Assembly (NCBI GenBank): GCA_919902995.1
Contig: CAKKSD010000039.1
Location: 1 to 49,513 of the forward strand
DNA from: Thermodesulfovibrionia bacterium
GTDB taxonomy: Bacteria; Nitrospirota; Thermodesulfovibrionia; JACRGW01
Reading direction: 5' to 3'
DNA: 49,513 nt
Shown here: piece by piece, positions 5,715-46,866 of the stretch
How positions within the stretch are numbered: position 1 is the first letter of the stretch
Layout of the letters: the number at the start of each line of letters is the position of its first letter
Position numbers and translations under genes: made by a program
The notes under the pieces: generated by a model
Databases searched by the model: none
The model's input: the letters and a program-made list of their open reading frames with translations, nothing else
What the model was told of the DNA's origin: nothing

Positions 5715-5784
5715 TTGTCATTCTGAATTTATTTCAGAACCCTGAATCAAGTTCAGGGCCTCTGAAACAAGTTCAGGGTGACAA
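5715..5784. repeat. REP-like inverted repeat upstream of and into comEC
   Basis: TTGTCATTCTGAA at the left end and TTCAGGGTGACAA at the right end are near-inverted. Internal TTCAGAAC/TTCAGGGC arms make a multi-stem structure of about 70 nt. The right arm covers the GTG at 5778 that would give the longest comEC reading frame, so the true comEC start is more likely ATG 5802. Confidence 0.6.
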
Positions 5785-6749
5785 ACAACGATGCTTTAAG
5801 AATGCCCTCACGGACATCGGTTTTGATATACATTGTCCTCTCTTTCATCTCAGGAATAATCCTCGGAAATATCTTTTTATACTTTCCTCTCTCTGTTTTA
5901 ATCCTTTCGGCCCTTTCCTTTATATCGATCATTATCCTGAGTAAGGGAAAAAGGTTGAAGGCCCTTGCCCATTGTCTTATTGTGATATCTTCTTCCACCT
6001 ATTATCTTTACTCGGTAACAGTCCTTCCAGAAAATTACGTATCAAAATTTTTACGTGAAGATGTTCTCCTTAAAGGAAGAGTCCTTGAACCACCCAGCAG
6101 AGGACACGAAAGAGTAACCTTCATCTTCAATGTGAAAGAGGTGTATATCGGTGAAGAAAGGAGGTCTGCCTCAGGGAAGGTGAGGTTATCAGGGGAAATA
6201 AAAAGTCCTGTCAAGTATGGGGACATTTTACTCATAAAGACGAAACTTAAGAGTCCTAAGGGTTATCATAATCCTGGTGGCTATGATTTCGAGGAGGCTC
6301 TTTCAAGGGATAGGATATTTGCTGTTGGATGGGTTAAGGAAGAGAATATTGTCAGAGTCGGATTCGGAGGTAATTTTCTTCTCAGAAAAATCTATGAGGG
6401 AAGGGATAATATCAGAAGTTCTACAGAGAATTCACTCAGTAGTGAATCGTCTGCTATCCTTCAGTCCATGGTTATCGGTGAAGATAAAGACCTGACCGAT
6501 GAGATAAGGGATGCCTTCATGGCATCAGGCACAACCCATATACTTTCAATATCAGGTTCACATTTAGGACTTCTTGCATTCCTTATCTATAACATAGTCC
6601 GACTTTCAATACTAAGGCTGCCCTCAAGGCTTCTCCTGAGGCTTACCTTATATACAAGTCCTTCAAAGATAGCAGCCCTTACGACAATGCTGCCTGTTGT
6701 CCTCTATACCATTATTGCAGGGGGACAGGTGGGAACTATTGATTCTTAA
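5778..6749 (+). pseudogene. comEC: comEC 5' fragment (DNA uptake channel, truncated)
   Basis: ComEC is the inner-membrane channel for single-stranded DNA in natural transformation. The fragment has N-terminal membrane helices (about 10-75), the OB-fold-like DUF4131 region, and the beginning of the competence domain with ISGSHLGL (compare ISGLHVGL). It ends after AGGQVGTIDS, exactly where an intact protein would continue through several more helices (usually AG.QV.T.RS). The rest of the membrane domain is missing, and the C-terminal metallo-beta-lactamase part lies 4.4 kb downstream (from about 11197). Between them sits the hxs cassette. The better start is ATG 5802, since GTG 5778 lies in a repeat. 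Translation may still occur, but DNA transport is very unlikely. Confidence 0.85.
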
Positions 6750-6791: not shown

Positions 6792-7457
6792 ATGCAATTT
6801 TACAAAAAGATAACTTCTTTTGGATATCTTCTTTTTTGTCTCATTATCTTACTCTTAATATTACCTACATCTTTATTCGCTCATGGAGGAGGTCTTGACT
6901 CCTTGGGTTGCCACCATGATAGAAAACGCGGAGGGTATCATTGTCATCGAGGCCCCTTGGCCGGTCAGTATTTTAACTCCAAGCAAGAGGCTCTAGATGC
7001 GTTGAATTTATTGAGAGAAAAACCAAAAGAGTCCAAAAAACAAAAAGAAGACTCAGAAGTACTGAAAGAGAAAGTTGAATTTAGAAAGGTCATTAGGATT
7101 ATAGATGGTGATACTATTGTCTTAGATGGAGGCGAAAAGGTGAGGTTAATTGGAGTAGATACCCCTGAGACAAAAGACCCAAGAAAGCCTGTAGAATATT
7201 TTGGATGGGAGGCCACCAGGTTTACTAAAGAAATGGTTGAAGGAAAAAGAGTAAGGCTTGAGTATGATTGGCAAAGACAGGATAAATATGAAAGAACCCT
7301 GGCCTACATCTTTCTTGAAGATGGGACTTTTCTCAATGCCGAAATTATAAAACAGGGATATGGATTTGCTTATACCAAATATCCTTTTAAGTACTTAGAA
7401 GAATTTAGACAATATGAGCGAGAGGCGAGAGAAAATAGTAGAGGGTTGTGGAAGTAG
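6792..7457 (+). CDS. Secreted YHYH-domain / staphylococcal-nuclease-like protein
   Basis: A signal peptide (about 1-30, likely cleaved after SLFA) is followed by a short YHYH-type Cys/His-rich segment, LGCHHDRKRGGYHCHRG (38-54). After a Lys/Glu-rich linker comes a thermonuclease (SNase) domain (about 95-221). The SNase active-site pattern is present: VRLIGVDTPE, an acidic pair in DGDTI, and KYERTLAY. It probably hydrolyses DNA or RNA outside the cytoplasm with Ca2+, as the family does. It is the first gene of the inserted cassette, 23 nt ahead of hxsD on the same strand, so it is likely co-transcribed with the hxs genes. Whether it belongs functionally to the Hxs system is unknown. Confidence 0.85.
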   Translation: MQFYKKITSFGYLLFCLIILLLILPTSLFAHGGGLDSLGCHHDRKRGGYHCHRGPLAGQYFNSKQEALDALNLLREKPKESKKQKEDSEVLKEKVEFRKVIRIIDGDTIVLDGGEKVRLIGVDTPETKDPRKPVEYFGWEATRFTKEMVEGKRVRLEYDWQRQDKYERTLAYIFLEDGTFLNAEIIKQGYGFAYTKYPFKYLEEFRQYEREARENSRGLWK

Positions 7458-7480
7458 AAAATATAGGACGAATAAGATAG

Positions 7481-7801
7481 ATGAAAATCATAGAAAAATT
7501 AGAGGACGGTAAATTATTATTACGAGTTGAGAAATCTATATATCGTCATGATGCTATTCTCTCCTCAGCCTATAAATTCACTGATGATTGCTATATTCAT
7601 GTTGATTCAATAGATTCTAATTACTACGGCGTATATTTTGCACCAAAAGACTCCACTGTAGATTTAATTTCCCTAGTAAATAATTTTTGCAATGAACTCA
7701 TCGATGAGCAAATACGCTTTAGCCTTGACATCTCAAACAAATCAATAAAAGAACTTATCATACGAAAAGCCTTTTTCCCTTTTCAAGATCATGAAGAATA
7801 A
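7481..7801 (+). CDS. hxsD: His-Xaa-Ser system protein HxsD
   Basis: The product is small (106 residues), without a signal peptide or membrane helix. Position and character fit HxsD, the short conserved partner that accompanies the two radical SAM enzymes of the His-Xaa-Ser system: the N-terminal ends in a KSIYRHDAILSSAYKF stretch, and the C-terminal half is alpha/beta and acidic (NNFCNELIDEQIR). Its role is unknown; a carrier or leader-recognition function is one possibility by analogy with other radical SAM modification pathways. It overlaps hxsB by 11 nt. Base composition is low in G+C: one hand-counted line, 7561-7620, has 19 G/C of 60, against 33 of 60 for 4501-4560 in glmM. Confidence 0.75.
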   Translation: MKIIEKLEDGKLLLRVEKSIYRHDAILSSAYKFTDDCYIHVDSIDSNYYGVYFAPKDSTVDLISLVNNFCNELIDEQIRFSLDISNKSIKELIIRKAFFPFQDHEE

Positions 7802-9257
7802 GACTATTAACCCCTATATAATCCTGCCGTTCCATTTCATGAGATTTAAAAAAGATCATGTGCTTATAGTTAATTTAGTGGGCGAATACTTCTATTTATC
7901 TGCCGATGATTTTGCCAAAATGGTCGATTATTCTTTAAATCCAAAATCGGACCTTTATTTTAATTTAAAAGCAAAACATTTTATTGCTGAAACATTATCC
8001 GATCCTGCCATTGAACTTTTGACAATTAAATATAGGACGAAAAAAGGCTTTCTTTCTGATTTTACATCCTTGCATATGTTCGTTATCACATTAAGATGCA
8101 ATCATAAATGCACTTATTGTCATGCTTCCTCTAAAGATACAGACAAAAAGGTCTTTGATATGAGTATGGAAACTGCTAAAAAAGCAGTGGACATTACTTT
8201 AATGAGTCCATCAAAATCAATAAAAATCGAGTTCCAGGGTGGCGAGCCTTTATTAAATTTTGAAACTATCCAATATATAATTGAATACGCTAAAAGTCAG
8301 GCAGCGCTGAAAAGACAAAAAATAGAGTTTGTCGTCTGCACAAACCTAACCTTGGTCACTGATGAGATGCTTAAATACTTTGCAGACAACAATATTCTCC
8401 TATCTATTTCTCTAGATGGCCCTGAGCACGTGCATAATTATAATAGACACTATAGAGATGGCAGTGGCTCCCATGAAGATGTCTTGAGATATTTAGATAA
8501 AGCAAGGAAATATATAAAACCAGAAAACATTTCTGCTCTAATGACTACCACTAAACACAGTTTAAATTTCTCAAGTGAAATTGTTGATGAGTATATAAGA
8601 AATGGATTTAGGTCGATCTTTATTCGAACACTTAACCCCTTTGGATATGCCCTGCCAAAGATGGATGAGATTGGATACAGTGCATCAGAATTTATTGATT
8701 TCTACAAAAGAATACTTGATTACATTATTAAAATTAATCAAAAAGGGATTTATATAGAGGAGTCATTTACCTCCCTTTTATTGACTAGGATACTCACTCC
8801 TTTTTCTACAGGCTTTGTTGATCTTCAGTTTCCAGCCGGAATTAGTATCTCAGGGGTAATATATGATTATAACGGCAATGTTTATTCCTCTGATGAGGCA
8901 AGAATGCTTGCCCAAATGGGAGATAGTAAGTTTTGTATTGGTAATTTACACACAAACACCTATAAAGAACTCTTTTATAATAATACTCTCCAAAAGATTA
9001 TAAAAAGCACTTGTGCAGAATCATTGCCTGGTTGCTCAGATTGTGCCTTCCAAATGTATTGTGGAGTTGATCCTATCCGTAATTATGTAAGCCAAAAGGA
9101 TATTATGGGCCATAGACCTACCAGTGATTTTTGTTTTATTCATAAGGAAGTAATAAAATACTTGTTTGAGATTATTTTACAGAACGATTCAAATCAGATG
9201 GATGTTTTCTGGTCTTGGATTACTGGCCGATGTCTTTCTGAGGTAAGTATTAATTAA
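7791..9257 (+). CDS. hxsB: His-Xaa-Ser system radical SAM maturase HxsB
   Basis: Radical SAM enzyme predicted to modify the His-Xaa-Ser repeat protein HxsA. The 488-residue product starts with the HxsB-typical INPYIILPFHFMRF segment. It then shows the 4Fe-4S cluster motif CNHKCTYC (Cys 103, 107, 110) and the GGEP SAM-binding motif (FQGGEPLL, about 147). A C-terminal Cys-rich auxiliary-cluster region of SPASM type follows (CAESLPGCSDCAFQMYC, about 408-424, plus a later FCF). SPASM-type enzymes modify ribosomally made peptides through a second Fe-S cluster. The start overlaps hxsD and the stop abuts hxsC, so hxsD-B-C is one operon. Confidence 0.88.
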   Translation: MKNKTINPYIILPFHFMRFKKDHVLIVNLVGEYFYLSADDFAKMVDYSLNPKSDLYFNLKAKHFIAETLSDPAIELLTIKYRTKKGFLSDFTSLHMFVITLRCNHKCTYCHASSKDTDKKVFDMSMETAKKAVDITLMSPSKSIKIEFQGGEPLLNFETIQYIIEYAKSQAALKRQKIEFVVCTNLTLVTDEMLKYFADNNILLSISLDGPEHVHNYNRHYRDGSGSHEDVLRYLDKARKYIKPENISALMTTTKHSLNFSSEIVDEYIRNGFRSIFIRTLNPFGYALPKMDEIGYSASEFIDFYKRILDYIIKINQKGIYIEESFTSLLLTRILTPFSTGFVDLQFPAGISISGVIYDYNGNVYSSDEARMLAQMGDSKFCIGNLHTNTYKELFYNNTLQKIIKSTCAESLPGCSDCAFQMYCGVDPIRNYVSQKDIMGHRPTSDFCFIHKEVIKYLFEIILQNDSNQMDVFWSWITGRCLSEVSIN

Positions 9258-10394
9258 ATGCTTGCTCTTCAAGGGATTCCGAAAAATATCAATGAGCCTC
9301 TCTTGGGAAAGATTTCCTTTTTTTCAACAGAAAAAGATAATAGATCAGAAACAATAATTGTTGATCCTAAATTGTCCAAACGTAAGCTAAAAAGCTACGT
9401 GGCAAGTATATTTTCATGCATAGATATTGATGACCAACTAAAAACAAGTGGTATTCCAATAGTATACAACGTGAATAATATCCACTTATTATCTGAAGGC
9501 GATGTGGTAGAGATATTGCCCAATGGTTTAATAAATGTTTTCTATCAGATCAACTCCAAACATAATCTTATCTTTGTAACCTCTAGGTGCAACAGCAATT
9601 GTATAATGTGTCCTCAACTTATTGACAACAATGAAGGCAATCTTTTGGATTTAAACTTAAAACTGATTTCTTTAATCGATAAATCCACTGAAGAATTGGC
9701 TCTAACGGGTGGCGAACCAACTGTAATAGGACATGACTTATTTCATTTAATTCTGGCCTGTAAGCATTATCTTCCCAATACTTCTTTGCTCCTACTAACC
9801 AATGCAAGGAAATTTAGTGACTTAAAATATACCCATCTTTTCAGCAGCCTTGGTCATCCTAACATTACTATTGCAATAACCCTTTATGGGGATAATAATA
9901 TTGAGCATGATTTTATTGCCGGTTCAAAAGATGCTTTTAATGAAATGGTCAGGGGGATTCTTAATCTTGCTACCTTTGGTAATTCAATCGAGATACGGAT
10001 TGTAATTCATAAATATACCTATAAAGGGTTGCTAAGAATATCTGAGTACATTTATAGAAATATGGTATTTGTTAAACATATTGCTTTTATGGGATTAGAA
10101 ACTACTTGGCGGGCAAAAGCAAATTTAGAATTACTTTGGGTGGAACCAAAAGAAATTATAAATAGCTTAGAAGAATCAATCCGCTATTTGGCACAAAGGG
10201 GCATGAATTTGTCTATATATAATATCCCCTTATGCTTGCTTCCGAAAAATTTATGGAAATTTGCCAGACAATCTATTTCGGGATGGAAGAATTCTTTTGA
10301 TTCAAAATGTCTTACGTGTTCAGTAAAAAACCAATGCTCTGGAATGTTTGAATCCGGAGTTCCTGTATACAGTCAGTATCTTCAACCTATTTGA
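9258..10394 (+). CDS. hxsC: His-Xaa-Ser system radical SAM maturase HxsC
   Basis: Second radical SAM enzyme of the cassette, 378 residues. The N-terminal about 90 residues are a family-specific region. The cluster motif CNSNCIMC lies at Cys 111, 115 and 118, and TGGEPT (about 154) is the SAM-binding motif. A C-terminal CLTCSVKNQC suggests partial auxiliary-cluster ligands. HxsB and HxsC are distinct families that occur as a pair, so they probably act in sequence or together on HxsA. The ATG follows the hxsB stop directly with no spacer. It ends 6 nt before the convergent hxsA stop; no terminator is visible between them. Confidence 0.88.
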   Translation: MLALQGIPKNINEPLLGKISFFSTEKDNRSETIIVDPKLSKRKLKSYVASIFSCIDIDDQLKTSGIPIVYNVNNIHLLSEGDVVEILPNGLINVFYQINSKHNLIFVTSRCNSNCIMCPQLIDNNEGNLLDLNLKLISLIDKSTEELALTGGEPTVIGHDLFHLILACKHYLPNTSLLLLTNARKFSDLKYTHLFSSLGHPNITIAITLYGDNNIEHDFIAGSKDAFNEMVRGILNLATFGNSIEIRIVIHKYTYKGLLRISEYIYRNMVFVKHIAFMGLETTWRAKANLELLWVEPKEIINSLEESIRYLAQRGMNLSIYNIPLCLLPKNLWKFARQSISGWKNSFDSKCLTCSVKNQCSGMFESGVPVYSQYLQPI

Positions 10395-10400
10395 TTAATT

Positions 10401-10988
10401 TTATCGCCAGAGTAAAGATTTAATCTCTTTTAAATCTATCCTTTGCTTGGTATTCTCTGGGTCAGGTTTTGTGATCTCAATGGTATCATCTTTACACTCA
10501 GTTACCACTCCTCCCACTGTATTATTATTGTTTAATGTTACAATCACATCACGAAGATATAGTTTGCAAGAATTTTTCTGCCACTCCGTGGTTGCCTGCC
10601 ACTTTTTAGAAGAGGGTGAAGGAAAGGGAGTAGCAGGGGTATTTTTTTCAATTGTTTGGGGGACTTTTTGAGGCGTTACTGGTGCCGAAGGTTTAGTTGA
10701 TTCCTCAGATGGCATGGGGTACGAGGATGAACGATGCGCATAATGGGAACGGTGGGAAGAATGAGAACGATGTGAAGAATGAGAACGATGCCCAGCAAAT
10801 ATATTATCAGAAGTAAAATCGGCTTGTTCCAAAACAAGGGGTGGTGGATTTGAAATTAGCTGGATATTGTAGATTTTAGAGTCACTTTTTAGGGTAGGAA
10901 TATGGAGGGAATTTTTACCTTTTCCGGAAGAGGAGAAAATAATTAATGGGGAAAGAAGACTTAGGACCCATTCTACTAATCTTGCCAT
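10401..10988 (-). CDS. hxsA: His-Xaa-Ser repeat protein HxsA (predicted modification substrate)
   Basis: The 195-residue product has a hydrophobic N-terminus (about 5-20, export signal or anchor), a linker, and then seven consecutive His-x-Ser/Ala triplets at residues 67-87. In these, H is followed by R, S or Y and mostly by Ser. A Pro/Ser/Thr-rich spacer (about 90-128) precedes a compact C-terminal domain (about 132-195) rich in beta strands, of LSm/SH3-like appearance (VTLNNNNTVGGVV...IEITK). The triplet array defines HxsA, the presumed target of HxsB/HxsC. It is encoded on the strand opposite to hxsDBC and has its own near-perfect promoter. What is made from the His-x-Ser triplets is not known. 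Confidence 0.88.
   Translation of the reverse strand: MARLVEWVLSLLSPLIIFSSSGKGKNSLHIPTLKSDSKIYNIQLISNPPPLVLEQADFTSDNIFAGHRSHSSHRSHSSHRSHYAHRSSSYPMPSEESTKPSAPVTPQKVPQTIEKNTPATPFPSPSSKKWQATTEWQKNSCKLYLRDVIVTLNNNNTVGGVVTECKDDTIEITKPDPENTKQRIDLKEIKSLLWR
10745..10790 (-). repeat. 18-bp tandem repeat encoding the His-Xaa-Ser array
   Basis: Two consecutive 18-nt units (10745-10762 and 10763-10780) and a partial third encode the H-R-S-H-S-S hexapeptide of HxsA. Tandem DNA repeats of this kind can gain or lose in-frame copies, so array length may vary among strains. Confidence 0.75.
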
Positions 10989-11196: not shown

Positions 11197-12114
11197 AGCC
11201 AGATAGAGAAGGTTACTTTCATAGATGTCGGCCAGGGTGATTCGAGCCTGATAGAGTTCCCTGACGGTAAGAGGATGCTAATCGATGGAGGGGGGACCTT
11301 TGATAAAAGATTCGATATCGGCAGAAGGGTCCTTGCACCATATCTATGGGATAATGGAATGAAGAGAATTGACTACATCGTCCTTTCCCATCCCCACCCT
11401 GATCATTTAGGAGGGTTATTCTATATCATAGAAAATTTCAGGATCGGTGAGGTATGGGTTAACGGTGATTCTTCCTTAGAAGGTTATCAAAAATTTCTCA
11501 GGATTTTAGAGGGGAAAGGAATACCTGTTAAAGCCGTCAGAAGGGGGGATACCATTCTTGATGGAGACTATATTATCTATGTTCTCCATCCCTATCCTGA
11601 GTTTTATTCCGGCACATCCGGAGGAAAATCTTCCGGTCAGAATAATAGATCAATAGTCATTAAGCTGGCATATAAAAACCGTTCCTTTCTATTTCCGGGT
11701 GATATCGAAAAGGAGGCAGAGGATGACCTCATCCACCTTGGCAAGTGGCTCAAGGCCGATATCATAAAGGTTCCCCATCATGGCAGTAAGACATCGAGCA
11801 CAGAGGAGTTTCTGTCAATGGTACAACCTAAAGTGGCAGTTGTCTCTTCAGGAAAGGATAACGTCTTTAACCATCCGAACCCGGATGTCGTAGAGAGATA
11901 CGAAAGGTCCGGGGCAAGGATTTACAGGACAGATGCTGATGGGGCAGTGATTATTGTATCGGATGGTGAGAACTTTAAAGTAGAGACCTTCGATACCCTT
12001 TCACTTAAGAAGATTTCCCTGTCCGAAGGATCCTGTGGACAGGGGAACCGGGCTTTAGATGAGTGGTGGGGTGTGGAGGTGGAGAATATAAGGAGGTTAT
12101 GGAAAAGCATTTAG
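11197..12114 (+). pseudogene. comEC: comEC 3' fragment (metallo-beta-lactamase-fold domain)
   Basis: Reading from 11197 (after TAA at 11194) the frame gives SQIEKVTFIDVGQGDSSL, the normal start of the ComEC C-terminal domain. LSHPHPDHLGG (metal-binding HxHxDH) follows, then later PHHGSKTSS, the characteristic C-terminal ComEC motif. The first ATG is at 11275, which would delete the VGQGD strand, and there is no good start codon or ribosome-binding site before it. The domain is therefore a displaced half of comEC cut by the hxs cassette rather than an independent enzyme. It could persist as a stand-alone hydrolase only if translated from an unusual start. Confidence 0.85.
12022..12043. repeat. 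Near-palindromic 22-nt repeat, copy 1 (inside comEC fragment)
   Basis: TCCGAAGGATCCTGTGGACA followed by GG; the core is nearly identical to its own reverse complement. A second copy with one internal difference is at 18878-18899. Both lie in coding sequence. Confidence 0.7.
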
Positions 12115-12524: not shown

Positions 12525-14258
12525 ATGAAGATAAACCTTAAAAGGAATACACTTCTTGAAAAGATCCTCCTTCCTTTTGTTGTCCTTTCCTTTATTACTA
12601 TCATTGTGGTTTCACTTTTTGTAGGTGAGATTCTCACCCTTCGCATGGAAGAGGGCACAACAAAGGAGATAATCTCCTATAAGGATACTGTTGAGGGTTT
12701 TTTCAGGGACAAAGAGAAACAGGCGATTCTCTATGCAGAACTCCTTTCCGATGAAAGGAGGATACTTGAGAAATACGGCGGGAAACATCTCATGGGACTT
12801 TCCCATCTTAGTCTTTTCATGCAGGAAGGGCTCAAGATATATCTTGAACCATTAAGATTTCTTAAGGAGGGTGATACACAGCAGAAAGGGTTGATAAAGA
12901 AGGGTCTTTCTGGAGAACTCGCATCGGGTTTTATCCCGAAATCTATAGATAATGCTATCAGACTCGATTATGATGTTGTGGCACCTATTGATAAGGGAGC
13001 AATCATCATGGTAGGTTTTAGCTTTGATAATGAGTATTTAGGAGGAGTAAAGAAAAAGATAGGGAATGATATATTTATTCTCTATGGTGACAGGGTTGTG
13101 GCATCTACACTCAGAAAAGAGGAAGAAAGAAGGGAGATACAGAAGAAGGTTACAGAGGAGATTATTGATAGAATAACGAAGAAGGGTGAGTCTGTAATCG
13201 AGAGGATATTTCTTGAAGATAGGGAATACAAGGCTATATTTGCACCGCTCAAGAGAGATGAGACTGGCAGTGCTATATTTGGTATCGTGATGTCCACAAA
13301 TGACCTTGTCCTTGCAAAGAGGAAGATAATCCTGAATTATGTAGCCATATCGCTTTCTATCTTGGCGGTACTGAGCCTTATAAACTATATCGTTGTGAAG
13401 AGAAGCCTTCGCCCCCTCAAGAGGCTTTCAGCAATGGCAGACAGGGTTGCGAAAGGAGACCTTTCCCTGAGGGTTGATATAGAATCCTCTGACGAAATCG
13501 GAATTATGGGCGTATCATTTAATAATATGGTCGAGTCCCTAATAAAGGAGGAAGAGCAACTTAACCTCACAATCAAACAGATGATAAGACAGGAGAAATT
13601 CGCCTCTATCGGAGAAATAGCAGCAGGTATTGCCCATGAGATAGGGAACTCCCTTGCCATAGTAGTTGCGTATTCAAAGATGCTGGTTAACAAGGGCTGT
13701 GATGAAGATACAAAGGAGTGCCTCAATTACATCATGGATGCTGCGACAAGGATGGACAGGATTACAAAGAACCTCCTTATGTACGCAAAGCCCTCATACC
13801 AGCAGGAACTGCTCGATATTAACAGGATAATAGAAGAATCTATATCGGTCGTTTTGTTTCAGTGCGAGCGTGATGATACATCCTGCAGGATCGAAAAGAA
13901 TCTGAGCGAAGGTCTACCATCTGTTATGGGGAATAGAGGAGAACTCCAGCAGGTCTTTATAAACCTCTTTATAAACTCTGTACAGGCGATGCCTCAGGGC
14001 GGTACCATATCTGTCTCAACAGAAAAGATAGATAAGGATATTGTTATAAATGTAATAGATACAGGTGAAGGGATTCCTGAAGAACGCAGGGAGAGGATAT
14101 TCGATCCCTTTTTTACAACAAAGCCCAAAGGTACAGGCCTTGGACTCAGTATAACCCAGCGCATAATAGAGAACCATAAAGGAGAGATCCTTGTATGTAG
14201 CGATGCAGGGAAAGGCACTACATTTATAATCAGGCTTCCTGCAGTTCAGGAATCCTGA
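12525..14258 (+). CDS. Membrane sensor histidine kinase (HAMP, HisKA, HATPase_c)
   Basis: Senses a periplasmic or membrane signal and autophosphorylates. There is a first helix (about 15-36), an extracytoplasmic sensor of about 230 residues, a second helix (about 270-292), and a HAMP linker with RSLRPLKRLSAMADRVAKGD. The phosphoacceptor region GEIAAGIAHEIGNSLAIV follows (His near 371). The ATP-binding domain has N-box NLFINSVQAM, G1 DTGEGIP and G2 GTGLGLSI. The family usually has HEIRNPL; here it is HEIGNSL, a mild variant. The start at ATG 12525 is preferred over TTG 12507 because the likely promoter overlaps the latter. No response regulator is adjacent on this strand; the NtrC-type regulator at 15876 already has its own kinase. 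Confidence 0.9.
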   Translation: MKINLKRNTLLEKILLPFVVLSFITIIVVSLFVGEILTLRMEEGTTKEIISYKDTVEGFFRDKEKQAILYAELLSDERRILEKYGGKHLMGLSHLSLFMQEGLKIYLEPLRFLKEGDTQQKGLIKKGLSGELASGFIPKSIDNAIRLDYDVVAPIDKGAIIMVGFSFDNEYLGGVKKKIGNDIFILYGDRVVASTLRKEEERREIQKKVTEEIIDRITKKGESVIERIFLEDREYKAIFAPLKRDETGSAIFGIVMSTNDLVLAKRKIILNYVAISLSILAVLSLINYIVVKRSLRPLKRLSAMADRVAKGDLSLRVDIESSDEIGIMGVSFNNMVESLIKEEEQLNLTIKQMIRQEKFASIGEIAAGIAHEIGNSLAIVVAYSKMLVNKGCDEDTKECLNYIMDAATRMDRITKNLLMYAKPSYQQELLDINRIIEESISVVLFQCERDDTSCRIEKNLSEGLPSVMGNRGELQQVFINLFINSVQAMPQGGTISVSTEKIDKDIVINVIDTGEGIPEERRERIFDPFFTTKPKGTGLGLSITQRIIENHKGEILVCSDAGKGTTFIIRLPAVQES

Positions 14259-15925
14259 GAAGCTGCTTTTTCCCCCTCTTCTATAATACGCTCAAACTCA
14301 AGGGGATGATCTTCTATTAGGTCTTCTATCGATATCTTCCCCGTAAGCCATACCCAGCTCATCGGAAAGACACGGCTTTTCAGATGTACATTATAGAAGT
14401 GCCAGAGAATGCCAAGAAAAAGTGCGATGAGCGCCTCGGTGCTATGTGCAATGTATGCAACTCCCCATATCCAGAAAGAAGACCATCCCGGCAGTATATC
14501 CGCTGTCAATGTGGGGAACCAGTACATAAATCCTGTTGCAGTCATAACAAAGACAATAATCACTACAAGCCAGTAGTCAAGTTTCTGGAGATAGGTATAC
14601 CTGCCGAATTTCGGTCTTTCATCGGAGGTGCCGGTTAGATACCTTATGTTTTTCCAGCAGTCCTTAATGTCCTTCACCTGAGGCATGATTGCTGTCCCTA
14701 ACCTTTTCTTAGTTGAGAGGTAAATAATATATCCGATATGATATATGACATCTACGATTAGGACAACTGCCCCAAATCTATGGACATGTCCTGCCATTTC
14801 TATACCTCCCCAGAGATTTATCCATGCCTGAGATATCTTGAGCTCAGGGTATTTCAGGGTGAATCCTGATGCAGCGAGATAAAATACAGATGTAAATAGC
14901 GCTATGTGCTGTATCCTGTAGTGTATATTCATCCTTTCAAACTCTCTTGGAAGGTTCTTGAGGAGGGTATTCAAAGGAGATTTCACAGGGGTTTCCCTTC
15001 CTTTTCTCCTTCTTTTTGTTATTTCTGAATATATGTCAAGGACAAAGTGAAAAAACAGAAGGAAAACAACAGAGATGATCATCCAAACCATAACAATTCT
15101 TACATAGAAGGCTGTGGGATTGTTCTTTGAGTCAACCGGCCTGTGGGTAAAGGCACGGGCGAATTCCTCTGTTGCCCCTTCATGACATTTCGAACAAAGC
15201 GTTATCTTATTTGTTCCAAAGACAGGAGATTCAGGATCATTATGACTTTTTATATTGTGGCTGCCGTGGCATATTACGCAATTAGGTGTCTCCTTGCTTC
15301 CTATGGCATACCTCTTTCCATGGAAATGTGCCCTGTAGGATTCTACGACATAGATATTCAATCCATACCTTGATGCAATAGTTCTGTCGCTGTGGCACCT
15401 TGCACAGGTCTCGACTATCCTATGCCTTGATGAAGATGATAGAGGGTCTGAGGATTTCCTGATATAATGGGGAGGGCTATGGCAGTCTGTACAGAAGGCG
15501 GCATTCTGGATACCTTCTTCGAGTATCGCCTTTCCGTGAATACTCTTTCTGAAGACCGAATATTCCCTGTTATGACATCCCACACAGGAGGCGACTGTTA
15601 ATGCATCCTTACCTTTTCCCTTAAGATATTTTGATACCTCTTTCACCTCATTAGAGGTCATATCTTCAGAGACGGAATGAGTCATCTTCTTGAACCTTAT
15701 AGCATGACAGCCTGTGCATTCGAGTTTGCCATGGACTGAGTCTTTATATTCCTTTTCGTCAATAAACCTTTCGTCCCTGAATCTGCTGTGGCAGATTATG
15801 CATTTTACATCTAATTCTGATGCAATAGCGGAGAAAGGTAATATAGATATGAAGAAAGAAAGGAAGGCAGAGAATCTATACAGATTCTTTCCTGTAAGGT
15901 ATATTGTATTTCTTGAGTTTCTCAT
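14246..15925 (-). CDS. Fused heptaheme cytochrome c / cytochrome b membrane protein
   Basis: An electron-transfer protein that probably passes electrons between the quinone pool and periplasmic carriers. A signal peptide is followed by seven CXXCH heme-c motifs (CIICH, CTGCH, CVGCH, CTDCH, CARCH, CVICH, CSKCH). A membrane helix comes next, then a prokaryotic cytochrome b561-like domain with about four helices and conserved His residues (NIHYRIQHIALF, GHVHRFG, HSTEALIALFLGILWHFY). The first reasonable ATG is 15925, which overlaps the upstream regulator gene by 50 nt; the open frame extends further to 15982. The same architecture exists as two separate genes at 19703-20638 and 18997-19737. The C-terminal MSWVWLTGKIS block is shared with that cytochrome b. 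Confidence 0.88.
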   Translation of the reverse strand: MRNSRNTIYLTGKNLYRFSAFLSFFISILPFSAIASELDVKCIICHSRFRDERFIDEKEYKDSVHGKLECTGCHAIRFKKMTHSVSEDMTSNEVKEVSKYLKGKGKDALTVASCVGCHNREYSVFRKSIHGKAILEEGIQNAAFCTDCHSPPHYIRKSSDPLSSSSRHRIVETCARCHSDRTIASRYGLNIYVVESYRAHFHGKRYAIGSKETPNCVICHGSHNIKSHNDPESPVFGTNKITLCSKCHEGATEEFARAFTHRPVDSKNNPTAFYVRIVMVWMIISVVFLLFFHFVLDIYSEITKRRRKGRETPVKSPLNTLLKNLPREFERMNIHYRIQHIALFTSVFYLAASGFTLKYPELKISQAWINLWGGIEMAGHVHRFGAVVLIVDVIYHIGYIIYLSTKKRLGTAIMPQVKDIKDCWKNIRYLTGTSDERPKFGRYTYLQKLDYWLVVIIVFVMTATGFMYWFPTLTADILPGWSSFWIWGVAYIAHSTEALIALFLGILWHFYNVHLKSRVFPMSWVWLTGKISIEDLIEDHPLEFERIIEEGEKAASQDS

Positions 15926-17261
15926 AGAAGTTCGGTCTTGGCATTCCGGCCTCCATTGCAGCCCTACTGACCCTCCCGTCATGTTTCTTTAGGAGCGATA
16001 GTATGTATTCTTTCTCGAACCTTTCTTTTGCCTCCCTGAAAGTGAGGGTGCCGTAGGATGGTATTTCCACCTTAGAGTTATCCCTTAATTCGTCTGGGAG
16101 GGTTGGTATATCAATCTGTTTACCGTCAGACATTAACACCGCTCTTTCCATCAGATTCTCGAGTTCTCTCACATTGCCTGGCCAGTGATAGTTCAACAGG
16201 AATCTCATTAGTGCCGGTGAGATGGTCTCGACTGATTTTGAGAATTTCTTGTTGTATTTAAGCAAGAAGTAATAGATCAGAAGGGGGATATCCTCTTTCC
16301 TTTCCCTGAGAGGAGGCAGGTTTATTGTGAATATATTTATCCTGTAGAAAAGGTCTTCCCTGAAATTTCCTGTCTCCACTTCTTTTTTGAGGTTTTTATT
16401 TGTAGCAGATATAATCCTCACATCGACTGTAAAGGGTTTCCTTCCTCCTACTCTCAGTATCTGACCGTCCTGAAGTACCCTCAGGAGTTTGACCTGAAGG
16501 CTTGGAGACATTTCGCCTATTTCGTCAAGAAAGAGTGTCCCTCTGTTTGCTGCCTCGAAGAGTCCTTCTTTAGATCCAACAGCTCCTGTAAATGCCCCCT
16601 TCTCATACCCGAAGAGCTCGCTCTCGAGAAGGGTCTCAGGGAAGGCAGAGCAGTTTATTGAAAGGAATGTCTTATCAGTCCTGAGGCTATTCTTGTGGAT
16701 TGCCTGCGCGATAAGTTCTTTTCCTGTGCCGCTTTCACCCTGAATAAGGACGGTGGCATCTGTGGGTGCTACCTTGTCAATCATGGAGAAGACCTCTTTC
16801 ATTACCTTACTCTCACCTATGATATTTTCCCTCTCCTGAAGGGACTTTAGTTTTTCTCTCAGGTATCTGTTCTCGTCAAGAAGTCTCTTGTGCTGGAGGG
16901 CGTTCTTTATGGTGATTTCTATTACATCGGGATCAAAGGGTTTTGTTATATAGTCATAGGCACCGATCTTTATCGCTTCAACAGCGGTCTCGATCGTCGC
17001 ATATGCTGTAATTAGAATAAAGGGGATGGCAGAGTTATATTCCTTTATATTTCTCAGAACCTCTATACCGTCCATCCTTGGCATCTTGAGGTCAGAAATG
17101 ATAATGTCAGGATTTTCTCTCTTCGTAGCCTCAATACCTTCCTCTCCGTCTTTGGCAAGGAACAATGTATAGTCCTTGAGTAAACGCCTGAACATCTCCC
17201 TCATGCCGGGTTCATCGTCTATAACAAGTATTTTTTCTCTCTTCTCGATATCCATACTCAT
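15876..17261 (-). CDS. Sigma-54-dependent response regulator (NtrC family)
   Basis: Activates sigma-54 promoters when phosphorylated. The 461-residue protein has a receiver domain (about 10-125, phosphoacceptor Asp 57 in IIISDLKMPRMDG). The AAA+ domain has Walker A GESGTGKE, the sigma-54 contact loop GAFTGA and Walker B LFLDEIGEM. A Fis-type helix-turn-helix lies at the end (about 420-455, GRVSRAAMEAGMPRPNFYEKL). It overlaps its kinase gene by 4 nt and the following cytochrome gene by about 50 nt, so it sits inside a respiratory operon. A sigma-54-type promoter at 21123-21138, upstream of the same gene group, is a plausible target. Confidence 0.95.
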   Translation of the reverse strand: MSMDIEKREKILVIDDEPGMREMFRRLLKDYTLFLAKDGEEGIEATKRENPDIIISDLKMPRMDGIEVLRNIKEYNSAIPFILITAYATIETAVEAIKIGAYDYITKPFDPDVIEITIKNALQHKRLLDENRYLREKLKSLQERENIIGESKVMKEVFSMIDKVAPTDATVLIQGESGTGKELIAQAIHKNSLRTDKTFLSINCSAFPETLLESELFGYEKGAFTGAVGSKEGLFEAANRGTLFLDEIGEMSPSLQVKLLRVLQDGQILRVGGRKPFTVDVRIISATNKNLKKEVETGNFREDLFYRINIFTINLPPLRERKEDIPLLIYYFLLKYNKKFSKSVETISPALMRFLLNYHWPGNVRELENLMERAVLMSDGKQIDIPTLPDELRDNSKVEIPSYGTLTFREAKERFEKEYILSLLKKHDGRVSRAAMEAGMPRPNFYEKLKKYNIPYRKESV

Positions 17262-18616: not shown

Positions 18617-18991
18617 TTAACCAGGGACACGCTTCAGTTTGGGCATCTCTCCATGACAGTTTATGCATATATCCTTATTAACGACCATTGTCTTATGTCC
18701 CCTGAAGCTATGACACTGGTTACAGTGGTATTCAAACTGTGTATGAACAATATGTGAAAAGACGCCCTTCTTCGGTGTTTCAACAAACCGATTGTAGATA
18801 TGACATTTAAAACAGATGAGGTTTTTTATAGTGTCTTCCTTCTTTTCTGTCTTTTCTCCGGATAAAGAGTTTGGCTCTCCGAAGGATCCTGCGGACAGGA
18901 CCGATTTTTTAGCAGAGGTGAAATCTGTCCTCGGGCAGGCAGTAAATAACAGGATAAGAAGTGCTGTGAATATTACCGATACCTTTGGCAT
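18617..18991 (-). CDS. Small triheme cytochrome c lipoprotein
   Basis: 124 residues. A signal sequence ends in a lipobox (LLFTAC, Cys about 19), followed by a low-complexity stretch and three heme motifs CFKCH, CNQCH and CINCH, with extra His residues (SHIVHTQFEYHC) that may be distal ligands. It is likely an outer- or inner-membrane-anchored periplasmic electron carrier for the neighbouring cytochrome c/b pair, 5 nt downstream of the cytochrome b gene. The low-complexity segment (VLSAGSFGEPNSLSGE) is partly encoded by the 22-nt near-palindromic repeat at 18878-18899, suggesting that a repeat was inserted in frame. Confidence 0.8.
   Translation of the reverse strand: MPKVSVIFTALLILLFTACPRTDFTSAKKSVLSAGSFGEPNSLSGEKTEKKEDTIKNLICFKCHIYNRFVETPKKGVFSHIVHTQFEYHCNQCHSFRGHKTMVVNKDICINCHGEMPKLKRVPG
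18878..18899. repeat. Near-palindromic 22-nt repeat, copy 2 (inside cytochrome gene)
   Basis: TCCGAAGGATCCTGCGGACA followed by GG, matching 12022-12043 at all but one position (C/T at the fifteenth base). It is read in frame in the triheme lipoprotein, within the non-heme linker. Confidence 0.7.
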
Positions 18992-18996
18992 AATAT

Positions 18997-19737
18997 CTAT
19001 TCCTCTTTCTTTTTAATGGAGGCGTCGGGGAATAGGCGTTCGAATTCTGCAGGATGGCGTTCCTTAAGATCCTTTGTTGATATCTTTCCTGTAATCCATA
19101 CCCAGCTCATAGGGAAGACATCGGGTTTAAGGTGTTCATTGTAGAAATGCCAGAAGAATATGAAGACAATCGCAAGGAGTGCCTCATCGCTATGCATTAT
19201 GGAGAAAAGTTCCCATGCCCAGTTAGTTGCCCATGAGGGTATTAATAGAGCTGCCTTTGTCGGGAATGCAAGGGCAAGACCTGATGAGCCTATGATGAGT
19301 ATTCCCCAGAAAACAGCCCAGTAATCAAATTTCTGGGAGTAGGTGAATCTCCCGAACTTAGGTTTCTCTCTGGATACGCCGAGGAAATATTTTATGTTCT
19401 GATAGAAGTCTTTCAAGTCCTTTGGTGTTGGAAGTATATCAAAGCTGCGCTCACCCTTGTAAAAACGATATGCCAAATATATCAGGTGGTATAAAAAATC
19501 GAGGAGCATAGTGATACCAGCGATCCTGTGGATAAGACCTGCGGTTTCAGGTCCCCCCCATATCCTTATCCACCTGCTCGAGTATTCTACCTCAGGGTAT
19601 TTAAGTGCCCACCCTGTAAGGGCTACAAGGATAAAGGTGGTAAAGAGTATTACATGCTGGATCCTGTAATGGATGTTGAATCTTTCAATCTCTTTTGGTA
19701 ATTCACTCACCTGTAACTGAGGCTTCTCTGGACTCAT
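18997..19737 (-). CDS. Cytochrome b561-like membrane subunit
   Basis: 246 residues with about four helices carrying likely heme-b His ligands (FNIHYRIQHVILFTTFILVA, AGLIHRIAG, FLYHLIYLAYRF, HSDEALLAIVFIFFWHFY). It is predicted to take electrons from or give electrons to quinone and pass them to the heptaheme cytochrome encoded just upstream. The two genes overlap by 35 nt in different frames. This pair corresponds domain for domain to the single fused protein at 14246-15925, including the shared IERFNIHYRIQH and MSWVWITGKIS segments. Confidence 0.87.
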   Translation of the reverse strand: MSPEKPQLQVSELPKEIERFNIHYRIQHVILFTTFILVALTGWALKYPEVEYSSRWIRIWGGPETAGLIHRIAGITMLLDFLYHLIYLAYRFYKGERSFDILPTPKDLKDFYQNIKYFLGVSREKPKFGRFTYSQKFDYWAVFWGILIIGSSGLALAFPTKAALLIPSWATNWAWELFSIMHSDEALLAIVFIFFWHFYNEHLKPDVFPMSWVWITGKISTKDLKERHPAEFERLFPDASIKKKEE

Positions 19738-20638
19738 CTTCTTCGATCCTCCCTTTTCTAATATAATCCCTTATTATTGAATATGCTTCAAGGAGCACAT
19801 GCAGAACACACCCTGCGATGACAGATATCGTTAGTATGATAAGGCCCTTCTCTGCATAGTAAGGTATGGGGTTATCCCTGCCCATAGGTTTATGTGTGAT
19901 GGCAGAGACGAATTTTGTATTTGCACCGCTATGGCAACTACCGCAGAGTTTTATCCTGTTTTTCCCGAATAGCATTGCCTGAGTGTCTTTGCTGCTCTTC
20001 ACAGCGTGACTTCCGTGGCAGGTCGTGCATACAGGCACCCTTTTATGCCCGAGGATGTATTTCTTACCATGAAAACTCTCCTTATACCTTTCAAGGACCT
20101 TTGGGCTGAAACCATAATCCTTTGAGATTGACTCTTTCTCATGACATCCCCCGCATGTCTCCATCACATGCCCGAAGTCCACAGGGGACTGGCCAGATTT
20201 TCCAGGTAATATATAATGAGGTGACCTATGGCAGTCTGTACAGAAAGCCCCGTCTGATTTCTTCTTTATGAATATGTTCTGACCGTGTACACTTCCTTTA
20301 ACCTTTTCGAATACATCAGGATGACACTGGTTACAGGCAGAGAGCGCAACCGGGTCTGTCTTGCTCTTTAACTTGAGTGATGAAGACATATCAAGAGTTG
20401 CCTTATCTATCTCTTTATCCGCTGACCTGTGGGGTGTGTCTATATATTTTAGATGGCAGGAGGTACAATCCAGTGTGCCATGGACGGATTTTGCAAACTT
20501 CTCACCATCTATAAATATTTTACCTTCAGAAGTACCATGACATATAAGACAGGAGAGACTCTCTCCATAGACCTGTCCGGAAAGAAAAAGGATCACAATT
20601 AATACAATAAGGATTATAAATGAAAAAGGCCCTTTCAT
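19703..20638 (-). CDS. Heptaheme cytochrome c with C-terminal membrane anchor
   Basis: 311 residues: signal peptide (about 1-25), seven CXXCH motifs (CLICH, CTSCH, CNQCH, CTDCH, CGGCH, CTTCH, CGSCH), then one membrane helix near 268-288 and a short charged tail. It is likely a periplasmic electron carrier attached to the membrane and partnered by the cytochrome b gene that it overlaps. The start is well supported: CAGGAGGTCTT precedes the ATG. It is the first gene of a tightly packed minus-strand run reaching 14246 (cytochrome c, b, triheme lipoprotein, kinase, regulator, fused cytochrome). Confidence 0.88.
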   Translation of the reverse strand: MKGPFSFIILIVLIVILFLSGQVYGESLSCLICHGTSEGKIFIDGEKFAKSVHGTLDCTSCHLKYIDTPHRSADKEIDKATLDMSSSLKLKSKTDPVALSACNQCHPDVFEKVKGSVHGQNIFIKKKSDGAFCTDCHRSPHYILPGKSGQSPVDFGHVMETCGGCHEKESISKDYGFSPKVLERYKESFHGKKYILGHKRVPVCTTCHGSHAVKSSKDTQAMLFGKNRIKLCGSCHSGANTKFVSAITHKPMGRDNPIPYYAEKGLIILTISVIAGCVLHVLLEAYSIIRDYIRKGRIEEDESREASVTGE

Positions 20639-44688: not shown

Positions 44689-46866
44689 CTAAGAGCAAAA
44701 TCCGATTATCCTTGCATTTCCCTTCCTGTACCTTGTTTCTTCAGCGAGCATCTCTATCATCTTACGGTGCGTGATCCCCGTGTTTCCGCTGAAGAGTATC
44801 CTGTCTCTAACCACTGAAAAATCTCCAGGCGTAAGATCTGTGATGCTTCTTAGAATCTGTTCGTCTTCGGGTGAAAGACATTCCCCACCTATGAGTGGCA
44901 TGTGCAAAGTGTTGTAGAAATGGAGATTGCCCTCAGGTGTGAGTGGCCTAAACTCAATCTTAAACCTGAATCTCCTTAGTGAAGCATGATCAAGTCCTTC
45001 AATGTTATTAGTTGCAAAGGCAACAATGCCCGTATAAGTTTCAAGTTGCGTAAGTATCTCGTTGGTAAAACTCTTTTCCCATGGACGTTGGGCGTCTTTC
45101 CTGGGGAAAAGGAAGCTGTCTGCCTCATCGAAGAAAAGGATAGACCGTTCATCTTGGGCATCCCTGAATGCCCTTGCGATGTTTTTCTCTGTTTCACCAA
45201 CCCACATAGATTGTATCTCACTACAACGGTGTAGGTAGACTTCTTTCTCAAGTGTGTGCCCGAGGTAATAGACAAACTCAGATTTTCCAGTCCCAGATAT
45301 CCCATAAAGGAGGAGAGAGAAGGGTTGATTAAATTGCATGTCAGAATGATTTTGACGTTCTGCGAAGAACTTTGCTGATGAAATGATATTCCTTAATTCC
45401 TCTGAACAGTTTAGCCCTGTCAGGGAATAAGAACTGAAGTCTTTCTTTTGTCCTATCTTTGCATTCCTTCCTGTAATCACCTTTTCATGGCTTTTGAGAA
45501 CTGCTTTTATCATTCTGAGGGTCTGTTTCTTGTCGGTATTCCTCTCTACATTCAGTATTTGAAGTGCATTTACTATCCCGCTGGCATTTGTCGAATAAGA
45601 ATTGCAAAGCTCACGTATTTCAGCAGTACTGAAATATCTTCCTAACCCTTTGCGTTCAAGCTCTTTTGACATTACATTAAAACGTCGCTCCATATTAAAC
45701 TTTTTAAATTCCAAGGAGAAGCTAAACCGTCTCATAGTAGAAGGATTTATAAGACTGATATCATTTGTTATCCAGATAACCTTCTTTCGATGGCTTTCGA
45801 GGTTAGAATTTATCCAGCTTTTGTCGTTCCTGCTCTTAAATAAAGGGGAGTTAAAGGTGTTGAGGATATCGTCTGCCTCGTCTACGAGGATAACTGAATT
45901 ATTCCCATCGGCAAGGCTTATGGTTGCATAAATCGCTCCGAGACGCTGCTCGTGGTCATCATCCTTCGGAATCTTGACAGTGAGAAGTTCCTTTCTGAAG
46001 GTCTTTGCGAGGCAGTGGGCAAGTGATGTTTTCCCTGTGCCATGCTCTCCGTAGAAAAGGATGTTCTGTCCTTTATTGCTCATCAGGAGGGTTTTAATCA
46101 CTTCTTTCTCATCATCTGAGATGCCGAAGTCTGAAAGCGACATTACGGTGTCAGTTTCTTTTGTAAAGAATTCATGACTCAGGTCATTCCTGCCAAAACC
46201 TGAAAGGTAGTTTAAGCACCAGTCTGACATTCGGATATACCTTCTGTTTCCATCTATCAGTATAATCTTTGACTTAAAAAGAGTATCTTGGAAAAGTACT
46301 TCAGATATCACGGATCTCTTTACTCCTAAAAAGATGTGTAAGTAGTTTCTGAATGTATCTGCATTTGAAAGAACAAGTATTATTTCATTAAAAAAACGGT
46401 TCACAATCCCATCTACTCCAACAAAGAAACAGAGAGTGAGGACTTCTACTTCAAGGTCAGAAAGTCTGTAGGCTTCTTTGATAGTATGGAGACGCTTTTC
46501 CATTAAGGTTTTACTATATTTCGTAAGGGCTTCTGATTTCCTTAAGAGTATGGGGGTTATGTCTTTTCTCAATGTCTCTTCTATCACTGTCTTAGGCGCG
46601 TTTAAAATTGCCATATCTAACTTGAGGTCATCTTTTATCCTCTCTTTTATAGGAGGGTAATTCCTTTTGAGTACAGAAATCATCTTTCTTGAACCGAGAA
46701 GACAGCACCCATAATTAAAGAGATCATATGGTTGATTATAGAGCAGAATAGAATGTATACAATTGTGATAATACTCAATCGCCTTTTTTTCTTCGAAACT
46801 ATGGTTAAAGATGACCTTTTCAGTATAGAGATCAGAATGTCCAATTATTCTATGCTTTCCTCTCAT
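44689..46866 (-). CDS. Tandem AAA+ ATPase
   Basis: 725 residues. An N-terminal domain of about 230 residues without clear homology is followed by two AAA+ modules. The first has GEHGTGKT (about 272) and VILVDEADDIL. The second has GISGTGKS (about 522) and ILFFDEADSFL, with ATNNIEGLDHASLRRF as sensor/Arg-finger region. This arrangement resembles the two-ring Cdc48/SpoVK-type remodelling ATPases. The GGAG site is 8 nt ahead of the ATG. Upstream on the same strand lie an RNase-J-like and a PD-(D/E)XK-like gene; the target is unknown. Confidence 0.87.
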   Translation of the reverse strand: MRGKHRIIGHSDLYTEKVIFNHSFEEKKAIEYYHNCIHSILLYNQPYDLFNYGCCLLGSRKMISVLKRNYPPIKERIKDDLKLDMAILNAPKTVIEETLRKDITPILLRKSEALTKYSKTLMEKRLHTIKEAYRLSDLEVEVLTLCFFVGVDGIVNRFFNEIILVLSNADTFRNYLHIFLGVKRSVISEVLFQDTLFKSKIILIDGNRRYIRMSDWCLNYLSGFGRNDLSHEFFTKETDTVMSLSDFGISDDEKEVIKTLLMSNKGQNILFYGEHGTGKTSLAHCLAKTFRKELLTVKIPKDDDHEQRLGAIYATISLADGNNSVILVDEADDILNTFNSPLFKSRNDKSWINSNLESHRKKVIWITNDISLINPSTMRRFSFSLEFKKFNMERRFNVMSKELERKGLGRYFSTAEIRELCNSYSTNASGIVNALQILNVERNTDKKQTLRMIKAVLKSHEKVITGRNAKIGQKKDFSSYSLTGLNCSEELRNIISSAKFFAERQNHSDMQFNQPFSLLLYGISGTGKSEFVYYLGHTLEKEVYLHRCSEIQSMWVGETEKNIARAFRDAQDERSILFFDEADSFLFPRKDAQRPWEKSFTNEILTQLETYTGIVAFATNNIEGLDHASLRRFRFKIEFRPLTPEGNLHFYNTLHMPLIGGECLSPEDEQILRSITDLTPGDFSVVRDRILFSGNTGITHRKMIEMLAEETRYRKGNARIIGFCS

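What the first reader, a model, noticed from the sequence alone, without database searches (positions are those of the whole stretch)
6792..10988. Complete His-Xaa-Ser (hxs) modification cassette: two radical SAM enzymes, HxsD and a repeat substrate
Seen: two radical SAM proteins with CX3CX2C clusters (hxsB 7791-9257, hxsC 9258-10394), a small partner (hxsD), and a convergent gene (10401-10988) whose product has seven consecutive His-x-Ser/Ala triplets plus an export-like N-terminus. Known: HxsA-D are families defined by sequence, and SPASM-type enzymes modify ribosomal peptides. Inferred: HxsB/HxsC act on the triplets to make a metal-binding or cross-linked array, a product I do not know to have been described.
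Basis: partly seen in the sequence, partly recalled or inferred. Interest (0 to 1): 0.92.

Follow-up and report, generated by a model that had tools for sequence, protein, structure and literature searches.

The report
Histidine-serine peptide-modifying cassette inside comEC
A small foreign gene set that predicts an exported protein with a chemically modified histidine-x-serine repeat has landed inside this bacterium's DNA-uptake gene comEC, next to an exported DNA-cutting enzyme; the gene set is a known family whose product I could not find described, and unrelated genomes show the same company of nucleases.

Summary
hxsD (7481-7801), hxsB (7791-9257) and hxsC (9258-10394) pass the curated cut-offs of their NCBIfam models. 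The convergent hxsA (10401-10988, minus) carries seven His-x-Ser/Ala triplets but scores below the HxsA cut-off (58.2 against 121.65 bits); its leader motif, array and neighbourhood still mark it as HxsA-like. The system is known (Haft and Basu 2011); I found no determined product.

New here. (1) The cassette sits inside comEC, whose two halves flank it with the middle missing. In a Selenomonadales genome a complete Tn7-like transposon carrying hxs also splits comEC. (2) A secreted nuclease gene (SNase, 24 bp before hxsD) belongs to the insert. Exported nucleases of unrelated families adjoin hxs in 9 of 85 loci and 3 of 32 further loci, but in 0 of 496 distant ORFs. (3) Across relatives the third position is Ser in 579 of 587 triplets while the middle residue is free and almost never Cys. 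This fits i/i+2 His-ring to Cβ cross-links (triceptide type). (4) HxsB models as an N-terminal RRE-like domain plus a SPASM radical SAM fold; HxsD is not a winged helix.

The chemistry and any role in DNA handling are inferred.

The parts
5778..6749 (+). 5' part of comEC (DUF4131 plus start of the Competence domain), cut after '...AGGQVGTI'
   Evidence: ComEC_Rec2 profile positions 40-217; own comEC model positions 7-301 of 807
6792..7457 (+). exported staphylococcal-type nuclease with N-terminal YHYH motif; catalytic Asp/Arg/Glu motifs present
   Evidence: Pfam SNase E=6.4e-27, YHYH_alt 36.4 bits over cut-off 30; alignment to thermonuclease structures
7481..7801 (+). hxsD, small partner protein
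   Evidence: TIGR03976 76.8 bits, cut-off 50; model pLDDT 90
7791..9257 (+). hxsB, radical SAM/SPASM maturase
   Evidence: TIGR03978 601.9 bits, cut-off 370; C103, C107, C110 and C415, C418, C424 invariant, C448 in 96% of 83 homologues
7830..8042 (+). HxsB residues 14-84: RRE-like domain (three strands, three helices), predicted leader reader
   Evidence: AlphaFold model secondary structure; model aligns nearly end to end with CteB
9258..10394 (+). hxsC, second radical SAM maturase, with four C-terminal cysteines for an auxiliary cluster
   Evidence: TIGR03977 329.2 bits, cut-off 267.9; C326, C351, C354, C360 in 99-100% of 79 homologues
10401..10988 (-). hxsA-like substrate protein, 195 aa, with hydrophobic N-terminus
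   Evidence: TIGR03979 E=1e-15 but below cut-off; relative with the same layout in L045
10824..10841 (-). leader motif PLVLEQ (residues 50-55), about 16 residues before the first His
   Evidence: L53 nearly invariant in 18 HxsA; motif spacing 15-20 in most HxsA
10728..10790 (-). seven His-x-Ser/Ala triplets (residues 67-87), predicted site of modification
   Evidence: sequence and codons; third position Ser in 579 of 587 triplets across relatives
10404..10571 (-). C-terminal small domain of HxsA (residues 140-195), seen also in L045
   Evidence: no Pfam match; aligned with L045
11197..12114 (+). 3' part of comEC (metallo-beta-lactamase domain)
   Evidence: ComEC_Rec2 profile positions 443-663; own comEC model positions 528-791

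Best explanation
This is a horizontally acquired HxsABCD maturation cassette plus an exported nuclease that inserted into comEC and removed its middle. Proposed mechanism: the RRE-like domain of HxsB binds the PLVLEQ leader motif of HxsA. HxsB and HxsC, helped by HxsD, then oxidise the triplets, most likely joining the imidazole C2 of each His to the Cβ of the Ser (or Ala) two residues on. This makes a rigid string of small His cyclophanes that is exported with HxsA. The exported nuclease is a functional or selective partner of the system. Shown: genes, domains, insertion, conservation pattern, nuclease linkage. Inferred: the bond type, export of the modified form, and any joint role of HxsA and nuclease.
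For: HxsD, HxsB and HxsC pass family cut-offs. Triplet statistics: Ser third in 579 of 587, Ala in 8, middle residue takes 18 kinds, Cys only twice. HxsB model matches CteB, anSME, ChlB, TigE and SuiB. Published enzymes HaaB and ScaB make C2(His)-Cβ(Ala) and MscB makes C4(Phe)-Cβ(Ser) bonds at i/i+2 (PMC11002830). comEC halves flank the insert; the insert has lower G+C (0.345) than any of 451 sampled stretches of equal length in the window. Nuclease linkage: SNase is the most frequent of 203 Pfam families among 138 flanking proteins; 0 of 496 distant ORFs; p=0.0016 with the two seed loci left out; further cases.
Against: No product was measured. HxsB scores higher against the thioether family PapB (155 bits) than against cyclophane formers such as GrrM/OscB (84 bits). 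Most hxs loci (about 90%) have no recognised nuclease nearby, so it cannot be obligatory. comEC is involved in only 2 loci. The window genome also lacks DprA (over cut-off) and ComEA matches, so competence may have been lost anyway.
Confidence: 0.5

Rival explanations
1. Neutral landing: comEC was already useless in this lineage, the cassette arrived by chance in a dead gene, and hxs has nothing to do with DNA uptake.
For: No DprA over cut-off and no ComEA match in the window's genome, 94% complete; no comEC found in G001 and G002.
Against: DprA is present in all 12 relatives searched, including the same genus, so a loss would be recent. Both comEC fragments are still open frames, so the break looks recent. 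G002's contig ends just after glmM, so its comEC may merely be missing. A second, independent hxs element splits comEC in another phylum.
Confidence: 0.4
2. The nuclease link only reflects shared mobile-element baggage: hxs and SNase genes both ride on plasmids and islands.
For: At least 5000 plasmid records match the window SNase; hxs lies on 410 plasmid records, mostly conjugative; integrases, relaxases and Abi genes also flank it.
Against: Distant ORFs of the same loci show 0 of 496. Several cases are operon-like, same strand with 14-147 bp gaps: window, L028, L070, L072, L089, L172. Unrelated nuclease folds recur: SNase, Endonuclease_NS, and a near-threshold S1/P1.
Confidence: 0.3
3. HxsA is an exported metal-binding or structural His-rich protein and the radical SAM enzymes make another change (epimerisation, hydroxylation, ether bond).
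For: His-rich array; some HxsA carry a peptidoglycan-binding domain; EpeE, an epimerase, is also among the structural matches of HxsB.
Against: Epimerisation or simple metal binding does not explain why Ser at i+2 is almost invariant while the middle residue is free.
Confidence: 0.3
4. The comEC-hxs junction is an assembly error.
For: The source is a draft genome in 69 contigs; the junctions carry no clear repeats or element ends.
Against: Both halves of one gene, same orientation, flank the insert after glmM, the order seen in relatives; no other comEC copy in the genome.
Confidence: 0.05

Closest known systems
His-Xaa-Ser (Hxs) system, NCBIfam TIGR03976-TIGR03979 (Haft and Basu 2011)
   Same: HxsD, HxsB and HxsC over cut-off; HxS-array substrate beside them; leader motif and spacing
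   Different: HxsA below cut-off, convergent, with a C-terminal domain seen elsewhere only in L045; SNase gene attached; inside comEC
Triceptides / three-residue cyclophane enzymes (HaaB, ScaB, YhhB, MscB)
   Same: SPASM radical SAM enzyme and an i/i+2 aromatic-x-residue substrate, including His and Ser
   Different: two radical SAM enzymes plus HxsD; seven tandem motifs in an exported protein; bond not shown
CteB and PapB (sactipeptide/ranthipeptide maturases)
   Same: RRE plus radical SAM plus SPASM layout; CteB is the best structural match
   Different: they act on Cys; the window array has none
Mobile elements that disrupt competence genes or secrete DNases (Croucher et al. 2016, PMC4774983; AbaR in comM, PMC11472951)
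   Same: disruption of comEC and an exported nuclease in one insert; Tn7-like element in comEC in L064
   Different: the window insert has no integrase or transposase; transformation was not tested
Tn7-like transposons (tnsABCD)
   Same: hxs is cargo of such an element in L064/G333
   Different: no tns genes or end repeats recognised in the window

Membership tests
Hxs system | HxsB over TIGR03978 cut-off | tested here: met
   601.9 against 370 bits
Hxs system | HxsC over TIGR03977 cut-off | tested here: met
   329.2 against 267.9 bits
Hxs system | HxsD over TIGR03976 cut-off | tested here: met
   76.8 against 50 bits
Hxs system | HxsA over TIGR03979 cut-off | tested here: not met
   58.2 against 121.65 bits; also below the HxsA2-A4 cut-offs. 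It works like an HxsA: same array, leader motif and neighbours
Hxs system | tandem His-x-Ser array next to hxsBCD | tested here: met
Three-residue cyclophane (triceptide) system | radical SAM enzyme with SPASM-type cluster cysteines | tested here: met
Three-residue cyclophane (triceptide) system | aromatic residue at i, constrained residue at i+2, free middle | tested here: met
   579 of 587 Ser at i+2
Three-residue cyclophane (triceptide) system | match to a known cyclophane-forming maturase model over its cut-off | tested here: not met
   GrrM/OscB 83.8 against 310, YhhB 78.2 against 445, AmcB 62.3 against 425 bits
Three-residue cyclophane (triceptide) system | C-C bond shown by MS/NMR | not testable with these tools
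   needs expression
RRE-type leader recognition | winged-helix RRE in the HxsB N-terminus | tested here: inconclusive
   model shows strand-strand-strand-helix-helix-helix at 14-84 and CteB, which has an N-terminal RRE, is the best match over nearly full length; no separate domain test
RRE-type leader recognition | HxsD is a PqqD-like winged helix | tested here: not met
   confident model has two strands, helix, two strands and one long helix; nearest folds include Rpb11/AC19-type RNA polymerase subunits, none with E below 0.001
Tn7-like element (window insert) | tnsABC genes and terminal repeats with 5-bp target duplication | tested here: not met
   no such genes between the comEC halves; no clear end repeats. 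Met in L064/G333

The most novel reading that the evidence does not exclude
Hxs cassettes are modules by which mobile elements control DNA at the cell surface: a cross-linked His array (free or wall-bound) works with an exported nuclease against incoming or extracellular DNA, and elements that carry them can also break comEC, so that the host can neither take up DNA nor lose the element by transformation.
Probability: 0.18. Interest if true: 0.85.

Novelty: new variant of a known kind. Interest (0 to 1): 0.55.

Why it matters
Hxs systems are spread thinly over many phyla and sit on conjugative plasmids and at least one phage, yet I found no determined product or function. The triplet statistics give a sharp chemical prediction (His C2 to Ser Cβ, 2 Da per triplet) and the nuclease neighbours give the first functional lead I know of. 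Both are testable with one co-expression and one deletion experiment.

Tried and rejected
HxsD as the leader-binding RRE: rejected, its model is not a winged helix. Thioether chemistry on the array: rejected, Cys occurs twice in 587 triplets. Hxs proteins as a known defence system: no PADLOC match beyond general radical SAM similarity to viperin. Terminal repeats or target duplication for the window insert: only weak repeats of the kind seen by chance. Misassembly: disfavoured. Hxs in viral contigs as a source of comEC or nuclease cases: no comEC in any of the 11 contigs and no nuclease near the nine closer HxsB relatives; one nuclease-like ORF near a distant relative, L143. Literature: two papers hold 'His-Xaa-Ser' with 'radical SAM' and neither reports an Hxs product; the founding paper is not held.

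Full report
What is there. The window holds, in order on the plus strand, a 5' fragment of comEC (5778-6749), an exported nuclease gene (6792-7457), hxsD (7481-7801), hxsB (7791-9257) and hxsC (9258-10394); then hxsA on the minus strand (10401-10988) and a 3' fragment of comEC (11197-12114). HxsD, HxsB and HxsC pass the curated NCBIfam cut-offs. HxsA matches its model at E=1e-15 but at 58.2 bits against 121.65, so by the letter it is not an HxsA; by array, leader motif and place it works like one.

Family evidence. I aligned HxsB from six genomes and fetched 80 loci with it. Of 86 loci including the window, 83 hold hxsC, 80 hxsD and 75 an HxS-array gene; several of the gaps are at contig ends. 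Two of these loci (L029 and L051) show the same gene coordinates and contig length and are counted once, so 85 are distinct. Carriage is sporadic: HxsB over cut-off in 2 of 101 relatives, 5 of 369 genomes in the class of a Legionella carrier and 9 of 301 in the class of a Veillonella carrier, plus 410 plasmid records, 326 of them typed conjugative, and a Leptospira phage. L051 is titled Nitrospirae and corresponds to G299, of the same class as the window's genome, so the window is a Nitrospirota by inference.

Chemistry. In 87 array proteins the triplets number mostly 5 to 8. The third residue is Ser in 579 and Ala in 8 of 587 triplets, while the middle residue takes 18 kinds and is Cys only twice. 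The search pattern demanded Ser, Ala or Thr at that place for three triplets in a row, so the count is conditional on that, but it left Ala and Thr free and they are rare. His and the residue two on are thus the likely reacting pair. Published SPASM enzymes join exactly such pairs: C2(His) to Cβ(Ala) by HaaB and ScaB, C2(His) to Cβ(Arg) by YhhB, C4(Phe) to Cβ(Ser) by MscB (PMC11002830). I therefore predict His C2 to Ser Cβ cyclophanes. This is inference: HxsB scores below the cut-off of every cyclophane model it matches and nearer to PapB.

Machinery. The HxsB model (pLDDT 91) has a three-strand, three-helix unit at residues 14-84 followed by the radical SAM and SPASM parts, and aligns almost end to end with CteB. 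HxsC has four conserved C-terminal Cys, enough for one auxiliary cluster. HxsD is confidently modelled (pLDDT 90) but is not a winged helix; weak matches point to Rpb11-like dimerisation folds. A hydrophobic leader motif (PLVLEQ here) lies about 16 residues before the array, and 80 of 87 HxsA have a hydrophobic N-terminus against 36% of background ORFs. The HxsA of G012 carries a peptidoglycan-binding domain.

The insertion. comEC follows glmM in relatives. Here positions of about 301 to 528 of an 807-position comEC model are gone and 4.4 kb stand in their place; the G+C of the insert, 0.345, is below that of all 451 sampled stretches of that length in the window. No second comEC exists in the genome. 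In a Selenomonadales genome (L064, G333) comEC is split at model positions 213|216 by an element of about 36.6 kb whose left end carries hxsDBCA about 150 bp inside. Its ends show a 16-bp inverted repeat TGGATAAAAGAAATTA and the target duplication TACGC (read by eye from the junctions), and it encodes TnsA, a TnsB-like protein, a TnsC/TniB-like protein and TnsD. So hxs has entered comEC at least twice, at different points. In the window no ends or transposase are visible.

The nucleases. The window nuclease keeps the SNase catalytic motifs. Testing SNase and Endonuclease_NS in all loci gave nine loci with one within 1.5 kb (window, L028, L030, L032, L070, L072, L089, L098, L116) and none among 496 ORFs more than 4 kb away; with the two seed loci left out, p=0.0016. 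SNase is the commonest of 203 Pfam families among 138 flanking proteins, with Endonuclease_NS among the next. A second sample of 32 non-duplicate loci gave three more (L126, L172, L180). Exported ComEC-type metallo-beta-lactamase proteins adjoin hxs in L054 and L058 and an S1/P1 nuclease-like protein in L054, just under the Pfam cut-off. The samples were not drawn at random, and SNase is common on plasmids, so the size of the excess is uncertain.

How it may fit. Croucher et al. (PMC4774983) describe mobile elements that break competence genes, including a cassette in comEC, and others that secrete DNases such as YokF, Dns and IdeA; in Acinetobacter, Tn7-like and other elements break comM (PMC11472951). 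The window combines a broken comEC with a secreted nuclease. Against a causal reading: the genome lacks DprA over cut-off and ComEA matches, though DprA is present in all 12 relatives searched, so competence may have decayed around the same time.

Verdict. A real and complete Hxs cassette of known kind, in a variant form and setting that I do not find described.

Noticed in passing
L064 / G333:C34, about 2675-39270: A complete Tn7-like transposon (tnsABCD, 16-bp inverted repeats, TACGC target duplication) inside comEC, with hxs at one end and defence-like genes as further cargo.
   Followed up: partly
G000 (whole genome): No DprA over cut-off and no ComEA match in the window's genome, although DprA is present in all 12 relatives searched; competence may have been lost in this species.
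   Followed up: partly
L054 8756-9577 and 13452-14516; L058 11881-13032: Exported S1/P1-nuclease-like protein and stand-alone exported ComEC-type metallo-beta-lactamase proteins beside hxs.
   Followed up: partly
window 44689-46866 minus: Protein with two AAA ATPase modules and distant similarity to the anti-phage ATPase IetA (well below the curated cut-off), followed by an RNase J-like metallo-beta-lactamase protein (46967-48247) and a small gene of unknown family.
   Followed up: partly
window 14246-15982 and 18617-20638 minus: Multihaem cytochromes fused or paired with formate-dehydrogenase-type cytochrome b, flanking a two-component system.
   Followed up: no
L030, L052, L053, L113: Small class I methyltransferase genes recur beside hxs in unrelated genomes.
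   Followed up: no
L081, L091, L092, L101, L109: YhcG/DUF1016 PDDEXK nuclease genes recur beside hxs in Bacteroidales.
   Followed up: no
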